From assembly GCF_002443255.2 (NCBI RefSeq), contig NW_019211454.1, positions 50,965,885-51,029,884 of the forward strand: 64,000 nucleotides of DNA, given 5' to 3'. Below, in pieces: positions 15,802 through 59,069 of the stretch; position 1 is the stretch's first letter, and each line of letters starts with the position of its first letter. The stretch comes from Varroa destructor (lineage: Eukaryota > Arthropoda > Arachnida > Mesostigmata > Varroidae). The notes under the pieces are model-generated. The model did not search any database. It saw nothing but the letters and a program-made list of their open reading frames with translations, and was not told the DNA's origin. The position numbers and the translations under genes are program-made.

Positions 15802-18800
15802 ATGCCGCTGTTGCAGCGCCGTGAAAGAAACGCAATTTGCAGCACAATGTCCGTAGTGATGCGATCATCGAGCTTTCGCGAGCGCTCTCCACCGGCGATC
15901 TCCCTCGATCAGTGGGACTTCGGAAAGAGGCCCTCGCAGGCCATTCTCGCCATCGAACTCAACCATCACCGAGCTTCGTCGCGTTCGTGTTCCTCAATGT
16001 TCGTGAGTAAAGTTTAAGGCCTTAGGGTATCTATTGGTTATTTCACTAAGGAAATATCCTTACATAATAGTATTTTATATACGTATAATAAGAAAGAATA
16101 TATGGGCAGTCGCAGTTAAATGACAAGTGTGAAACACGATATAAGCATATATTGAAGTTGAATCGCCGTAGAAGAGACGAATCAGCCTTGTTACCCAATA
16201 TATGACTCCAGGCATATATGTCAAATACATAGGGCATTTGAAGAAATCGCTTGACAAAATTTGAAACTACAAGCTTTACTTGTACGCTATATTTATCTTT
16301 TACATATACTATATACATTTTTGTACCATACACATGTGTCGTAAAAAAGATTTACGCGCAAAGAACCGAAGTCATGCAATCTGGAGTTGCAAACGTTTTT
16401 TGAATTCTTTTGGTATCCCTAAGAGTCTGAGAAAATGTCTCGAGAAAATTTGTAAGATTAAAGTTTCAAAGCTTAGTCAAATAGTGAATGAACATGGGCA
16501 CGGACAGAGAGTTGTGTAAGAACGAGTATAAATCAATGTTTTTTTTCCGATTTATAAATATATATATACTTTGAGAATCTTCCTATACCTCTGCCAGTTT
16601 AAAAACAGTTTCAGAAAATTTGCAATATAAACACAACGAAAGTTGGCTAAAGGGGGAGAAAACGTAGGGTTGGCCAAACCGAAACAGTGAAGTTTATTTT
16701 GTTATGTACTGTTGTCGCAAAAATTGCAAAAGCTGAACTTGTCAATCTCAGTCTAAATATGCCCTGCGGGCTTCTATTATTTATTGCTTGTGTATAAAAG
16801 AAGTAGATTTCAATGATTTTAGCCAAAATAGGCCTAAGCTTTCTCGTAAAGAACCTACTAATATCTTTAATAGTATAGTGGAATCACGAAATATATGCAA
16901 AACATTATAAATTAGCGTTTTCTGCAACCCCTCCACCTTATTTTCATGGTTATATTTCAGATGGAATATGATTATTTTTCATTTTTATTATAAATGACTA
17001 ACGAAGAATGATAAAACTATGATAATACTGTATTGCACAGACAATAATTGTACAACAAGCATTTAATGCAGGTTATGGTCACTATTCCACAGACAGTTAC
17101 GCCTTCCCTCCTACGAACAACTAAGCGGAGCGGCATAGCAATGGGACGTACAATTTACGTCCTAAAAGTGGACGTGTCGGATTGATGCCGCACCGCTTTA
17201 GGCGTTCTTGCTTGGGACAAGTAGGCCCTGATAGAAAGGTCCTGAGGCACTCAAAAATGTCGAATTTTCAGATCCATTAATCACAGAAATACTATTAAGA
17301 AGATTAGGAAGATGTATATACCAAGCTCAGCGTTTGCTCAGTAAAATAATGTTAATGTAGAAAATGCACTGACAGGTAATAACAGGCATTTGCTCTACGC
17401 TGTTGTTTGTCACTAACATGTTATACCAGCAGGAAACGTCCTCCAGTGAGTACCAACTAGGCATCTACGGCTGGAGAAAGAAACTATTATACTTGATTGT
17501 CTTTGTGCTATCTTGGCTTCTGGTAGCAAACCTACTTCTCACGCTATGGATAATAAGGTGCATATGCCATTTTCGTACTATGAACTGCAAGCTATTACAA
17601 GGCTTAAGCTGATTTATTTAGAAAAAGTAGAAAACATTCCTTAATTTGTTTCCCTTTGTTATTATTCATATTTAAAATCAATTAAATATTTTTATTGTTG
17701 GAGAAACTTTATTGTCACATTGCACAAAAAACATTTAACACAAATACTTAGCTTAGTGTTGATTAGTCATATCGCAAGATGGTTTAACATATTGGACTCT
17801 TGTGTTTATGACACTTTTACGTTAAAAAATGCTCAATATACGTAATACTCATTTTGTTGCATCCAATAAATGCGATGTCTATTTTTAGAAACGCCATTAC
17901 CTGGATAATATTTAGAGAAGTATTTTAGTGCTTGCTTTTCTTGTTGTGGCATTGCCTTTAGAGTTCTTCATTTCTCTATGGACGGAGTTGCTCACTTGAA
18001 GATTGATGAATCGTCCGTCAAATTTACAGCTGATGCACACTTCCTTCGAGGGATTTATACTAACTATATACGGCACTCCGCCAAGGTATGATTTGTTAGT
18101 TTTGAGGTACGATGCACTTGCCAACCAAACCGCGCTGTTACTTTATACTGTATTTACTGACCTTTTCATCGTTTTATGTACTTTCACACGAATACCTGTA
18201 CGCATCCAGTGGGAAGAGGCATATACGGATCCATTCCAAAAAACAAACTCCCTCGTACTTAACGCTGCAGGCGAAGTGCGATTGCGTTCATTAAGTCGCG
18301 ACGGAATCGTTAATGAAGTTGTTGTGGGCGAATCAAAATTTTTCGTCAAATCCGACGACTTCAGTGTCTTCAGTTCCGGCGAAGAGCTCCTACTACGCGT
18401 TACAAATGACACACTCTACGTCAAACAAGCTACTGTTCACGGTAGTTACTTTTAGTATTAACGCGATTGTCACTCTATAAACTTTTGTACGGGAAACGAT
18501 TCGATCAAAATTTACTAATTATTGAATGATATTAATAAACGTTGTGCGATTCATTGGATTTCTCGTTTGTGCCCCTATGAGATTTCAGTTGAGAATGGAG
18601 TACGTTTGGAAAAATCATTGCAGACCCCACAAATTACCAGTGGCGAGGAGTTGCTTATAGAGAGTCCCATGGCACGGCTTGGCGTACAGGTTTGTTCAAA
18701 AGCTCAGGCCCTTTATTTCTTAGCAAAAAGAGTTTTAAATACTTTCATGATCTTTAAAATCGGCTGTAGACTCAATTTTAGATCCCAATAAAGAGATCAT

Positions 18801-24977: not shown

Positions 24978-25565
24978 CTAGATTTCTTTAACGGTGGGCA
25001 CGATCTTCGCTACCTTACGATATTCTTTCTCCAGACTCTTAGGGCACTGCATCTCCGTCCAACTTATAGGTACCATCGGCATTCCCGATGATTCAGCTAA
25101 CGCGATAACAACTCCAAGTTCGTTTTCAGCCGTTGTCAAGATATAGCTCATTGCATCACCCATTGTCAGTACCTTAGCAAGCACAATGTCGCCTGGGTGG
25201 AACGATTTAATGATTTCGACCTTATCCTTTTCAAAAGCCCTTACGTCTTCCTTGCGTATAACCCCTCGGAATGGTTCTTTTAGCTCGGCTTCCTCGATGC
25301 ACAAGATCGCAACTTTAGCATATCGTTGGTTAATTGCTGTTACTTTGCACGTAACTACTGCACCTGGAGAAGGCACAGAAAGACGACCCAGTGAACGGCG
25401 CACTTCTACCAGAGATTTCTTGCCATCGTCCTGCTTGATAATGTGCATAACACCCGTCAGACTAGCGTAAATGTAACCCTGCAAGACGTAAGTTCCAGGA
25501 CCCGAAAGTAATTTTTCTCCCAGGGCGCAAATGCGCATCCCTGGCGTGCAAATCTCACCTGACAT
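24978..25565 (-). CDS. EXOSC1: Exosome complex component CSL4
   Basis: A complete intronless frame of 195 codons, the same length as human EXOSC1. The ATG has an A-rich context (AAAATG). Seen: an N-terminal domain beginning CTPGMRICALGEKL (family: YCIPGERLCNL); then an S1-type RNA-binding domain from about residue 65 to 140 with VTCKVTAINQRYAKVAIL, FRGVIRKEDVRAFEKDKVEI and FHPGDIVLAKVL; then the C-terminal domain with YILTTAENELGVVIA and ISWTEMQCPKSLEKEYRKVA, all close to the animal family. Known: Csl4 is one of three S1/KH cap subunits of the RNA exosome, which degrades and trims RNA 3'-5' in nucleus and cytoplasm; the cap helps guide RNA into the central channel. The human gene has introns, so a single-exon copy is either lineage-specific intron loss or an old retrocopy. 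The intact frame and nearby poly(A) signal argue for a working gene. No neighbour shares its pathway. Confidence 0.95.
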   Translation of the reverse strand: MSGEICTPGMRICALGEKLLSGPGTYVLQGYIYASLTGVMHIIKQDDGKKSLVEVRRSLGRLSVPSPGAVVTCKVTAINQRYAKVAILCIEEAELKEPFRGVIRKEDVRAFEKDKVEIIKSFHPGDIVLAKVLTMGDAMSYILTTAENELGVVIALAESSGMPMVPISWTEMQCPKSLEKEYRKVAKIVPTVKEI

Positions 25566-52692: not shown

Positions 52693-55600
52693 CTAGGCTG
52701 CTATAGTCAGCCTTTCGCTAGGATTGCTTTCGAAAAATCCCTTTTGTCAATGAAGCCTGCATTTATGGGTTAAGCAAGTGAGCTTATTTCGTCTATACTA
52801 TATTCCTTCGTTCGCGAAGCGATGAAGCTGAAGCTTATAATATGATGCGCTTGCAACGAATATTGTGGTTAGACCTGGCGATAGTTTACGATCTATTCCT
52901 ATCTTTCTTTTGTTTGTAAAAAACCATCCACCGTATTAGACACAAACAGCAAATGTTAGATCTAGCCCGCTTTTTGCATGCTTCGATTTGCCTGCGCTGT
53001 CCAAGGCGTCCAGTATTTTACCTTAAACCTTACATGTCATACAATTAAAAAAAAAAACTCTAATTAGTAACCTCATAGCTTCGGAATCACAAGCTTAGTG
53101 CTGCCAACGTGTGTTTGTATTAGAAGTCGTGGGCAGGATTTAGTGTCCATTAGGTATGATAAATAACATTCCTCATGCCCAGTATAAAAAATGAATTTTT
53201 CCCCCAAGGAGAAACTTTTTATATAATCCTAGTGTCATATATAATATTATCTATAATCGAAGGACTAGAATATCTGCAACTATCGACGAAGTGTATCCGT
53301 GGAGGAGGCAGAGAGTGATTATGTGAATATGTCCTATTTTGACCACATGTGTGTGCATCGACGACCCGAATAAAAGCCCCACTATTTACGTACATCATGA
53401 AATCCATATTCGATCTTCGACGTTCGTGTTCGCGATCTCATGCTGATGGGAACAGAAACACACCAAACCTGGCAGACAAATTCTAGTTTCGTGAAGTGTT
53501 AACTCCGTTAATCAATCTGTTTGTTAAGCAATCCAAACTCAATTTAATCAAAAAAAAAAACAAAACAAAATCGAAAGGTTTTCTTCCGAATTCTGGTGGT
53601 TGTCATCTCTATTAGGATTTGCCTCCGGATAAAAAAAAAATAGAATATTTGCTCCCCCTATAATAGCAGTTTTAACGTTTGCTGTTTGATGTCGTCCTCG
53701 CTACCGTGGCCCTGTTACGTATTTCAGCCGAATTTGAACGTAGTCAGCGACTCCAAAGGAGTTTGTCTAGAAGTTCTGTCGCTCGAAACCGTTGAAAACG
53801 CGCCGAAAGGCTTTTCGATGGTTTTGGCTTCCCAATGTTGTCTTGTCATCTGTCGATGGGGTGTCACCCCTTCTATAAAATAGCGTCATTCTGGTATTTT
53901 TTATGTTGTTTTTTCTCTAATATATCTCAATTACTCAGTTAAAAAAAACGATCAAAGAAAGCAAAATAGTATATAATACTATTCCGATGTTTTTTGTTTG
54001 CTTCTAAATTGGACAAACATAAACATTTGGTCAAACTGAATCTGGGCGAAAAAAATTCGATTGAACTGATGGGTTTTGAGAAGTAGTTAGCTGCGTTTGA
54101 TATTATGAGGCCCATGACGGCTGTGAACGCTCAGGTGGTGGCAATCTCTACGGACAAACCTAAATGGTATATGCGAAAATAGCGTATTTTCGATCGATCC
54201 TAGTCACTGCAATACCTAAAGCTCAATAACGTTTTAATCATTTATTTACTGCTATAGCTAAGTAACCAATGGATTGTTTTGTCTACGAAAAGGTGTATCG
54301 GACGTTAGATGGTTATATTATGATACCTTTCTGCTTCTATATTTTATATCTGCTTCTATATATTCTAGGGGCTGAGAAACCCTATTAGTTCTAAGGAATC
54401 AGGATGATCTTCTCCATATTATTCGTTTATATGTAACAAGATATAGTGCTAATAACCAAATATAGGATAAAAATCGCCATATAATCTTCTATGTAACCAG
54501 TTGGTCGCGCCTTAAACAAAGCAAGCTCGCGTATTCACCCTAACTAACGGGTGAGTACCATTCGGATACTGATTGAAATATGATTGATTGACCTTTCTGC
54601 GCGGTTCATCTTCATTAAATGTTCACATCCTAGGTATTATACAGAAGACTTGAAGAGGTCTCAAACCGAAGCCGTTTTACTACCCATTAGTAGCGTTGAC
54701 GTGTCTTTTGGTTTGCTTTCGCGTTACATTCATTTTTATTCGACCTAAATTTAGCTTTTTGAAACACAGGTTGTACATACAACGTATGTATAAAGTAGAA
54801 AATGTATAAAATGCCATTTTTTTTTATCATGAAATAGATTGACATCGAAAAGCACTAACGTAGCTTTTTTTTAAATTTATTTATTTTTATTTTTACGTTA
54901 CGTATTGCCTTGCATGGGAAGTGGATCGATCACTGAGTGTATATATATCGCTGTGCGTGTCTACAGACATGGACGTCATTTGACATCACTGGAATACAAA
55001 ACGCATCCAAAATTTCTGTAGTAGCGGTTTTCTGGGCGGGATCGGATGTTAGTAAATATATGTGTATATAAGTTTTTCCAGTGGTTATGACCGTCAAGTG
55101 ATTACAAAATAAAGAGTCGATTCCTTTGTAGTTCACTGAAAAAAAAAAGAATAAAGAAATATTTGTCCTATAATGTTTTTTGTTGTTTTTTGACTATGTG
55201 TGAGACTTCTTACATACACATCCTGGTCATGTCACATGTTTGCCAAATTCAACCTATTTTAATTGGACAAATTGCAATCAATTAAGTGGTTAAATTAAAA
55301 TCAATCAAGTGGCTCAATTTACTCCTATATGATTACACACTAACATCCTTGTCAATGCGCTAATATCTATTGGATCGACCTGCTAAAACTTCAATATTGC
55401 GAACTCTGCTAAGCAACCTCTATTATATTTCGGATCTATCAGCAATTTACGCAACTTTTTTTCGCTATCCCCATTACAGAGTCATTGCGTGAAAACCAAA
55501 AAGCTGCTGTCACCATAGGCATGTACGATGTCTATTCTTTTGTGAGTAAACTTTGCAGATCACAATATTTTCTAACGTTTTTGGCGATTCCGAGCGTGTG

Positions 55601-55852
55601 AATAAGTCTTCGGTATCACCATTTTGGTATAATATCAAAAATTGGCTTATACTAGGAAGTTCAACAGGGCTGAATCTTACTTAACTTATTTGAGGTTCTT
55701 CCAATACGGTTGTCAGTCACAGTCGCCGAATAGACCTGGAATCGCAGATCTTCCTCTCGTATTACCCTGTCTATTTAATTTCAACTTCACCCTCAGCCAA
55801 GGCCTGACCTAAACACCTTTTTCATTTTGATTCTTCGTCCAGCCTACTTAGC
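52693..55852. other. AT-rich stretch, no supported gene
   Basis: A GC-richer patch at 53,680-53,885 is open in one plus frame (65 codons from a start codon) and in two minus frames, so a coding strand cannot be chosen. The upstream exons of the minus-strand gene ending at 52,692 should lie here or further right, but none was recognised. Confidence 0.35.
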
Positions 55853-55883
55853 ATTAACGAAAACAGCATTTGTTTTCGTTAAT
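55853..55883. repeat. Perfect 13-bp inverted repeat (hairpin)
   Basis: The arm ATTAACGAAAACA is followed by a five-base loop and its exact reverse complement. It lies about 130 bases left of the large palindrome. Confidence 0.8.
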
Positions 55884-56009
55884 TGCCGCAGATCTATGCA
55901 CAAGCGGTCTTTAAATCATTTGGGTTAAAATCAGTTAGGAAAGCCAAATTCATATGCTACACGTATAAGAGAAAAATTTTTATAACGAGTGTTCATTCGA
56001 CTCTACCTA

Positions 56010-56347
56010 AAGTAGCTTAATTCGAAATTAGGCAACTCACAATGAATAATGTAAGACACAGAAGGCATGTAAGTACATAAATGCATACGGTCAGAACGGT
56101 AGACAGGCTGAAGTAGATTCAACGATATGAGCGACGAAGTTCAAATATTTGAGATTTTGAAATTGATTTACTTATCTGTTATAAGTAAATCAATTTCAAA
56201 ACTTTGAACTTTATCTCTTTCGTCGCTCATATCATTGAGTCTACTTCAGCCTGTCTACCGTTCTGACCGTGTGCATTTATGTACTTACATGCCTTCTGTG
56301 TCTTACATTATTCATTCCGAGTTGCCTAATTTCGAATTAAGCTACTT
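56010..56347. repeat. 338-bp near-perfect palindrome (foldback element or hairpin-RNA locus)
   Basis: Two arms of about 165 bases are reverse complements, separated by a loop of only 7 bases (56,175-56,181). The outer ends read AAGTAGCTTAATTCG on the left and CGAATTAAGCTACTT on the right. I count about four single-base differences in the outer 130 bases; the inner part has an indel-like mismatch near the GACGAA motif, then pairs again up to the loop. No convincing target-site duplication is visible at the ends. Known possibilities: a foldback or MITE-type DNA element, a locus whose transcript folds into long hairpin RNA for siRNA production, or a chimeric assembly join. The right arm contains a short open plus frame (from 56,235), probably incidental. 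Confidence 0.9.
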
Positions 56348-59069
56348 GTTAATGATAATAGATATAATTTTTTTTCGGACAAATGCTGTGAGTTCGACAA
56401 TACACAACCGGCCGCCTATTAGAATTTTGTTCGGGCAACAACGCTGACGATTGTAGGATACAACACAGGAGTAGCCTCGTTGCGGGCTAACGCTTTTAAT
56501 GTATTCAAAAGAAAACTTGAAATAATGATTATTGATAGAAATTAAGTTATCTACATTATACACCCAGGGAGTTTATTATTTAAAAAAAAAAGGGCGAAAA
56601 AAAATTAAACAATAATCGGAAGTTTTCAATGTTCATTCATGTGTGCATATTTTCGTGTTATACTACTTTGCTAAATATTTTGTAACGATTTTCACCTCGC
56701 TCTGCACAAATACTGCTTTTCGCTGATCGCTCATATTAATTAGACCTAAAACAGGCCAGAGTTTTTAAGGTATTTTACTTTATCATATGCGACACAGTGT
56801 GCTTACTTTCAAGCCGAACACCACTAGCGAAACTCGCATGAGCACCGCAGCGTGTCCTAGCTATATCTGCACTTTCCGAGCGCTGACATGGCCTGCTCCT
56901 CACCTTTTAGAGGTCCTATATTACTACAAGAGCTTTAAACATCAATTTTTAAACACACTATATAAATTATACCCGCTTAATGTACGATGGGTCTGCATTT
57001 CACCCTGGGCCTGTTTTGCCCATAGTGAGCAGCATGCGTATCCTGACACGTATAGAAAGGATTATTAACCGCTATGCATCACTCTCAACCGGCCGATTGT
57101 TTTTCTTATGGATTCACCTGCTAGTATGAAATGCACAGCCTGAAATATGAAAAACCTGAAAGCGTAAGACAGGTGGCCTGATGGGAATTCAGTGACAAAC
57201 AGGACAAACACCGCTCACCTTACTCATCAATATAACAAAAGTGCACGCACGAGCGCTATTGCCAGGTTCAAGAGACCCAAGAAGGCATGCGTGTTTCTGC
57301 TATATTAACAGCGTAGTATATTGGAGGCCGTGCTTAATGGCAGTGCCGGACAAAAACTCGAAACTTTTAGTTAGACTGAAAGGGGTAGGAGAACTACGGT
57401 CCGACGCGTAGCCTGAAGTAGCACCTAATACTAACTGAAAGATCTATAAGCGAACTAACTACCACACATGAAGAGAAAAATTTTCGAGTAATTGCTGTTA
57501 ATTACAACTGTGATGCAAGATCCTCCTTTGCTATGACACACTTCATTTCGTACTAACATCCAATGATGTCGTTCGACAATGGGGGCTTCTATTTTTAGTT
57601 CGGTGAAGACTAGCTTTGGCCATGGTGGGATTGACTTGCTGTATCGTTTGCATTTCGTTTTCCCTCGGGAAAACGAACATTTATCGCTAATAACAGGAAG
57701 GCTTTTTGGGAATACTTAATTTTCTAAAAATGAAAAGAAAATAATTATTTAGTGTGAACGTACCCAAATTAAAAATCCATACTGGTTTAGAGCCGAAGAG
57801 AAACAGGCAAAGCTATGTCGCCAGGCTCCTCGTATACACGGTCTATAAAAACTATACGTATATATTTAAACGAATTTTTGGGGTCTTTTTGAATTCGCTT
57901 AGCTCCGAGCAATTAAAGTGGATATTTCGCTGTTTATGGAAGCCATTTGAGATGTTTCTCTTACATAATTTTCAGCTGTTTTTATAATCGTTTGTTGGTT
58001 TTGATACCTTGATTTTATAACTTTGAACCTTGCATTTAAAGAGGTATTTTTTCGTTATTAAGAAAGATACGTACGGTTCAAACTTGCAGCAGACGTCAGA
58101 GCTCCTGACCTGCAGCTGTATTATGTTGAGTCCTTAGAGATGGAAATGCGTTTTATGGTACACATATATTTAAAATCAAACGTTTTTTTTCTGAACGTTT
58201 AGATACACAAGCGATACCCTTCTATACAAATTGAAGACTCTAAGATAACAAATGTATGTAAACTCATAAGAAGACTTTTTGCCGTGTAAAGTACTACTGT
58301 CAAGAAAATTAGAGACACAAAGACGTGCGAATACTCCATTTTTGTCTGCCATCTTCTGTAGCAACGTACGATATGACAATGACCATATGGCTGTCCATTT
58401 CATTCGAATGAAATCAAGAAAAAAGTATTACAGATGCTCACAGCCACAACAGAACGTTTAATCCACGAACGGGTCCACGGACATTTCTGAGGAGAATGTT
58501 AGATTAACAATATAATAACACAAATTATTATAGAAACGATTTATTGTTTAGTTCTCATGCGCCAATAGGAAAATCTGATGCTGTACCGTACAAACGAATA
58601 CCTACATACATCACAAATGCAGAGATCGATTCTCTTGCCTTATTAACTCTACTAGTATCTAGTAATAAAGAACCTTAAGTGAGATTATAGTAAATCGATA
58701 GACATTCAAATAAGCCCGCTTTAAAAACTGTTATCAAATATCATGCTTATTAATTCTACCTTTGGTCCCCGTGATGATGCAGTAGTAACGTAATTTCCTA
58801 CTAAAGCTAGAAACGCGTCGGGAGCCAACGATCAGAATCGATGTTTCAGGACGTAATCTACATAAAATAGGGAACCTTTGTTTTTGGACGTTGCTCCTGA
58901 TCTCAGTCGATATATACGGACGACAATTGGTGAACTTGCGTGAGCTGTTTAATCTGAGCGCGTTTTGCTCTCAGTTTTGACTTTCTGAGCACATTTTAAC
59001 AAGAACTCATTGCATTGTTTACCCTGTTTAACAAGAAGTGTGAACAGTTAACAGACGACAGTGCGCATT
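56348..59069. other. AT-rich stretch, no supported gene
   Basis: Frames at 56,787-57,068 and 57,754-57,987 (plus) are open for 77-93 codons but have no family resemblance and no good splice borders. The second is rich in Phe, Leu and Lys, as is common when AT-rich DNA is translated by chance. A small perfect hairpin lies at 57,654-57,677. Confidence 0.35.
57654..57677. repeat. Perfect 11-bp inverted repeat with 2-base loop
   Basis: The arms TTCGTTTTCCC and GGGAAAACGAA are separated by TC. It is too tight to fold fully as RNA at the loop, but it could be a cruciform or a dimeric protein-binding site. No gene border is tied to it. Confidence 0.75.

What the first reader, a model, noticed from the sequence alone, without database searches (positions are those of the whole stretch)
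56010..56347. 338-bp palindrome with a 7-base loop
Two arms of about 165 bases are almost exact reverse complements with virtually no spacer. Such a long tight palindrome is unstable in DNA, so its presence suggests a recent origin or active maintenance. Its transcript would form a long double-stranded hairpin, the kind of precursor that feeds siRNA pathways in arthropods. A MITE or foldback transposon is the main alternative, and a chimeric sequencing artefact the third. The inner 30 bases differ more than the outer part, which suggests some time since duplication.
Basis: partly seen in the sequence, partly recalled or inferred. Interest (0 to 1): 0.8.

Follow-up and report, generated by a model that had tools for sequence, protein, structure and literature searches.

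The report
Single-copy long palindrome in mite genome
In the genome of a honey-bee mite, about 165 bases are followed at once by their own reverse copy; the pair was found only once, looks more like an old DNA-copying accident than a mobile element, and has no shown function.

Summary
The palindrome is real: 56010-56347, outer arms 124/129 complementary, a 21-nt perfect core and a 5-nt loop (not 7); RNA fold -251 kcal/mol, z = -37.5. The host is inferred to be Varroa destructor. A MITE family is not supported. Nor is 'recent': the arms differ by 3.9%, against 0.38% published between V. destructor and V. jacobsoni. Divergent arms and unrelated flanks argue against a chimera; no reads were examined. 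Best reading: a local inverted duplication made by fold-back (template-switch) DNA synthesis, now decaying. A hairpin-RNA locus is possible but unsupported: no target-like copy in the searches answered (three probes were not), no strand bias of wobble pairs, no small-RNA data readable here. Ordinary in kind; low interest.

The parts
56010..56138 (+). left outer arm, 129 nt
   Evidence: (96% complementary to the right arm)
56219..56347 (-). right outer arm, 129 nt, reverse complement of the left
   Evidence: 5 mismatches, 4 transitions and 1 transversion
56139..56154 (+). asymmetric band of the left arm; holds a 12-nt perfect palindrome (56141-56152) not present in the right arm
   Evidence: alignment
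56202..56218 (-). asymmetric band of the right arm, holding most of its 9 extra nt
   Evidence: alignment
56155..56175 (+). left half of the perfect core stem, 21 nt
   Evidence: 100%
56176..56180 (.). loop, 5 nt
56181..56201 (-). right half of the perfect core stem, 21 nt
54800..56009 (.). left flank; no other match in the genome search
56348..57500 (.). right flank; no other match except 44 nt (57331-57374), 89% to one place on the same chromosome

Best explanation
It is a local inverted duplication. A nascent or broken strand folded back on itself at a short inverted repeat around the present 5-nt loop, synthesis copied about 165 nt of the strand it came from, and the end then rejoined unrelated downstream DNA. 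The product was one palindrome at one place; since then it has gained point changes in the outer arms and small insertions or deletions near the centre. It most likely has no function of its own; as a structure it can form a cruciform in DNA and a long hairpin in any transcript that crosses it. Shown: anatomy, one copy found, flanks without other copies, no target-site duplication, arm divergence. Inferred: the fold-back event, perfect arms at birth, the age, the absence of function.
For: One copy found in 366,193,577 bases, flanks without other copies but for 44 nt. No family of ends: the 17-nt end with up to 2 mismatches has 87+67 hits (own two included) against 75+65 for the reversed control. 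No direct repeat at the borders (...CTACCTA / GTTAATG...); exact words of 4-7 nt, or 8-11 nt with one mismatch, within 12 nt of the borders gave at best a 5-nt word. Mismatches are 4 transitions and 1 transversion, compatible with neutral decay. A 12-nt perfect palindrome present in the left arm only is the kind of change template switching makes. Literature: in Mre11- or Sae2-deficient yeast, repeats of 5-9 bp with 3-12 bp spacers drive large palindromic duplications; the human genome was counted to hold 718 near-perfect spacer-less palindromes over 200 bp (PMC7999016, passages); template switching is proposed to have made new hairpins, human microRNA loci among them (PMC8794818, passages).
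Against: No relative's orthologous site was available, so the one-arm ancestral state is not shown. About 165 nt would be long for a template switch: the largest such pattern in the rRNA study seen was 59 bp. I recognised no microhomology at the rejoining point. The uniqueness rests on a search that skips very common words and scores only best candidates.
Confidence: 0.62

Rival explanations
1. A hairpin-RNA (hpRNA) or long microRNA-like locus: a transcript folds into a duplex of about 160 bp that Dicer cuts into small RNAs with a biological target.
For: The duplex is long and stable. V. destructor is listed with two Dicer2, eight Ago2-class and four RdRP proteins (PMC7659050, passages). Divergence suggests that the palindrome has persisted. 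Microrna-family models score it (best MIR8562, E 7e-12, 67 bits) though far below their gathering scores.
Against: hpRNA arms carry homology to their targets (PMC10317233, passages); here the 338 bases have no other match at E <= 10. Of five arm stretches of 23-24 nt meant as probes with up to 3 mismatches, two were answered: one found only the palindrome, the other the palindrome and two further places, control 0, without arm similarity around them; three did not complete. Of the 5 mismatches 2 are G-U in a plus transcript and 2 in a minus transcript: no strand preference. No Rfam family reaches its gathering score. No transcript evidence and no eukaryotic promoter test was available.
Confidence: 0.15
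2. An orphan MITE or foldback transposon: one surviving copy of a family lost from, or never amplified in, this genome.
For: The shape (long inverted arms, tiny spacer) fits. Two further places match the 23-nt end with 3 mismatches while the reversed control has none; one of them matches over 28 nt at 89%.
Against: One copy found; end motif near control frequency; the two places lack a partner end and arm similarity in their 3 kb; no target-site duplication.
Confidence: 0.15
3. A sequencing or assembly artefact (fold-back chimera).
For: No reads could be examined. If the assembly is Vdes_3.0 it was built from merged Illumina reads of 409 +/- 61 bp with PacBio gap filling (PMC6773775, passages), only slightly longer than the palindrome.
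Against: A simple chimera gives identical arms; here 5 of 129 differ and there are 17 gap positions. It would not be expected to end in two unrelated flanks; the window has no N.
Confidence: 0.07

Closest known systems
Quasi-palindromes and inverted duplications made by fold-back synthesis or replication template switching
   Same: short spacer, unrelated flanks, one place found in the genome, arms that have drifted apart
   Different: arms of about 165 nt are long for a single template switch; the ancestral site is not known
Human palindromic AT-rich repeats (PATRR8, 11, 17, 22)
   Same: palindromes of about 200-595 bp at single named places (PMC7999016, passages)
   Different: not AT-rich against its surroundings: arm GC 38.8%, window 38.1%; no known rearrangement
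Drosophila hpRNA loci
   Same: inverted repeat able to form long dsRNA
   Different: no target homology found in the answered searches; no transcript or small RNA shown
MITEs / foldback elements
   Same: inverted-repeat shape
   Different: no other copies found, no family of ends, no target-site duplication

Membership tests
MITE / foldback transposon | several copies with shared ends in the genome | tested here: not met
   only itself at E <= 10; end 17-mer 154 hits against 140 for the control; two 3-mismatch places besides its own, without partner ends
MITE / foldback transposon | target-site duplication | tested here: not met
   border words of 2-10 nt compared, and words of 4-11 nt with offsets up to 12; nothing at the borders
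hpRNA locus | arms homologous to a target gene | tested here: inconclusive
   none found; three further probes not answered; the DNA search skips common words
hpRNA locus | Dicer-dependent small RNAs from the arms | not testable with these tools
   small-RNA libraries exist (PMC8966896) but reads and supplements could not be read here
microRNA precursor | match to an Rfam family at its gathering score | tested here: not met
   none in the window; 21 matches over 55900-56450 up to E 5 (18 to microRNA families, best E 7e-12), all below gathering
Template-switch inverted duplication | single local reverse-complement copy between unrelated flanks | tested here: met
Template-switch inverted duplication | ancestral or sister site holds one arm only | not testable with these tools
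PATRR | AT-rich compared with surroundings | tested here: not met
   GC 38.8% in the arm, 38.1% in the window

The most novel reading that the evidence does not exclude
An old, single-copy hairpin-RNA locus of Varroa, kept since before the split of V. destructor and V. jacobsoni, whose long dsRNA feeds the mite's expanded Ago2/RdRP pathway against a gene or virus too diverged to be seen by the genome searches made here.
Probability: 0.1. Interest if true: 0.6.

Novelty: new member of a known kind. Interest (0 to 1): 0.2.

Why it matters
If it makes dsRNA, it would be a native hairpin-RNA locus in a mite against which dsRNA acaricides are being developed (PMC11942661, listing only). As read here it is one more example of a long hairpin that probably arose without a transposon, and a caution that a long tight palindrome need be neither young nor mobile.

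Tried and rejected
MITE family: not supported, on copy number, end motif and border test. The two 3-mismatch matches of the 23-nt end (L006, L007) looked suggestive; L007 extends to 28 nt at 89%, E 9e-5 against its own 3 kb, which I scale to about 10 for the whole genome (my estimate), and neither has a partner end. In 20 pieces of 10 kb the 17-nt end with up to 4 mismatches had 13 hits and its reversed control 13.

Rfam hits over the hairpin are all below gathering scores; I take them as generic long-stem matches. Protein coding: in the 4 of 6 frames translated one frame is open through the right arm and, on the other strand, through the left; the frame 56208-56444 gave 2 candidates, none with E <= 1, in the protein collection. 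Gene context: Pfam scans of 34-64 kb in all six frames, 14 translated pieces, gave no domain at E <= 0.1 in 14 of 14; the same method finds the exosome and sarcoglycan genes. Exons without Pfam domains, or cut at piece ends, would be missed. The sigma-70 promoter scan (7 found, 4.8 expected; 0 terminator-like) says nothing for a mite. Prevalence: 20 pieces of 10 kb from the same chromosome hold 6 palindromes of 40-68 bp, in 5 of 20 pieces, and none longer at the settings used; too small a sample for a genome-wide rate. Exact scans of viral and prokaryote contigs for arm sequence found none, as expected for a mite.

Full report
Observation. The window holds a palindrome at 56010-56347. Two 129-nt outer arms are 96% complementary without gaps; within them is a 21-nt perfect stem with a 5-nt loop. 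Between outer arms and core lies a band, about 24-42 nt from the centre, where the arms differ by insertions or deletions: 9 nt more on the right, 8 on the left. Over 175 aligned columns 153 are identical, 5 mismatched and 17 gapped. As RNA it folds at -251.2 kcal/mol against -69.65 (sd 4.84) for 100 shuffles. In 20 Markov shuffles of the window one gave a 38-bp palindrome and 19 none of 35 bp or more.

Host. A single-exon exosome CSL4 gene lies at 24978-25565, minus strand. In a protein search (880 hits, best 120 listed) its first named relative is from the predatory mite Galendromus occidentalis, 83% identity; an unnamed one has 92%; the window's own entry, P0001, gives a longest contig of 76,898,487 bases. 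The window's own assembly G000 has 366,193,577 bases in 112 contigs, C1 of 76,898,487, C2 of 60,561,154 and C7 of 39,389,773 bases. The paper on Varroa destructor Vdes_3.0 gives seven major scaffolds of 39.4 to 76.9 Mbp (PMC6773775, passages). It also gives 368.94 Mb in 1,426 scaffolds, more than G000 holds; I suppose small scaffolds are left out of G000. I infer V. destructor, probably Vdes_3.0; no tool named it.

Copy number. The left arm finds itself and the right arm only; the whole 338 bases find only themselves, on both strands, at E <= 10; 2.7 kb around it finds itself and one 44-nt match, window 57331-57374. The tool warns that it skips common words and scores only the best candidates. 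The 23-nt end with up to 3 mismatches occurs at both ends of the palindrome and at two other places, control 0; neither place has a second end or similar arms within 3 kb. The 17-nt end with up to 2 mismatches has 154 hits, its own two included, and the reversed control 140. I see no family. A 24-nt stretch of the arm with up to 3 mismatches finds only the palindrome, control 0; three further 24-nt probes did not complete.

Borders. The bases outside the arms, CTACCTA on the left and GTTAATG on the right, share no direct repeat. With no other copies found and no target-site duplication, a MITE is not supported; an orphan element with a decayed duplication is not excluded.

Age. The outer arms differ at 5 of 129 sites, 4 transitions and 1 transversion, 3.9%. 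The paper gives 0.38% nuclear divergence between V. destructor and V. jacobsoni, from SNP counts over genome size, and a split 2-3 Myr ago from COX1. If the arms were identical at birth and drifted freely, the palindrome is about ten times older than that split. Conversion between arms would make it older still; a non-identical start, or an underestimated species divergence, younger; five changes give a wide error. 'Recent' is thus not supported, and V. jacobsoni is predicted to carry both arms. Palindromes are more recombinogenic the longer and more alike their arms and the shorter their spacer (PMC7999016, passages); palindromes of this size also persist elsewhere (human PATRRs of about 200-595 bp, 718 human palindromes over 200 bp, same passages).

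Artefact. Divergent arms, unrelated flanks and no N in the window speak against a chimera. If the assembly is Vdes_3.0, its merged reads of 409 +/- 61 bp and PacBio gap filling could cross 338 bp. No reads were examined.

RNA function. V. destructor has siRNA machinery (PMC7659050, passages), and small-RNA libraries with peaks at 24, 22 and 23 nt exist (PMC8966896, outline and Results part 1 of 2), but reads and supplements could not be read here. hpRNAs carry homology to their targets (PMC10317233, passages); none was seen, with three probes unanswered. The five mismatches give two G-U pairs in a transcript of either strand: no sign of selection for pairing on one strand, on few sites. Rfam models of microRNAs do score the hairpin, the best at E 7e-12 but 67 bits against a gathering score of 211. 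For hpRNA loci in mites I looked at two papers by term search only: PMC5805368 has one passage with 'inverted repeat', about Drosophila, and PMC7796550 uses 'hairpin RNA' of synthetic hairpins. A library search for Varroa destructor with 'miniature inverted-repeat' and 'MITE' found one paper, on predatory mites, seen in the listing only; one for Varroa destructor, small RNA, siRNA and hairpin listed 15 of 23 papers, none with a title on such a locus.

Mechanism. The anatomy (unrelated flanks, one local reverse-complement copy, 5-nt loop) fits fold-back synthesis: repeats of 5-9 bp with 3-12 bp spacers suffice in Mre11- or Sae2-deficient yeast, and template switching is proposed as a maker of hairpins, including human microRNA loci (PMC8794818, passages). 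The 12-nt perfect palindrome of the left arm (56141-56152) may be a later small event of the same kind. The length of the copied tract is unusual for template switching, and the one-arm ancestral state has not been seen; these are the weak points.

Verdict. Real, one copy found, probably old rather than young, not a MITE on present evidence; most likely a decaying inverted duplication without function.

Noticed in passing
window 24978-25565 (-): Open single-exon gene for the exosome subunit CSL4/EXOSC1 (Pfam PF10447, PF14382; best PDB matches are exosome component CSL4).
   Followed up: partly
window 17457-17561 and 18003-18455 (+): Part of a sarcoglycan gene: Pfam Sarcoglycan_1 at E 8.6e-6, below its curated cut-off, at 17457-17561. 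The open frame 18003-18455 has no Pfam match alone and is assigned to the same gene from recalled resemblance only.
   Followed up: no
window 57331-57374: 44-nt stretch with one 89% match on the same chromosome (C1:20747986-20748030), the only repeated piece listed for 54.8-57.5 kb besides the palindrome.
   Followed up: no
L007 1498-1525: 28-nt match at 89% to the right end of the palindrome, including 2 nt outside the arm; chance-like for a whole genome by my estimate, but the best outside match.
   Followed up: partly
window 34001-64000: 30 kb without any Pfam domain in six frames at E <= 0.1: gene-poor or long-intron DNA.
   Followed up: no
L008 7541-7608: 68-bp palindrome, 97%, the longest in 200 kb sampled from the same chromosome.
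   Followed up: no
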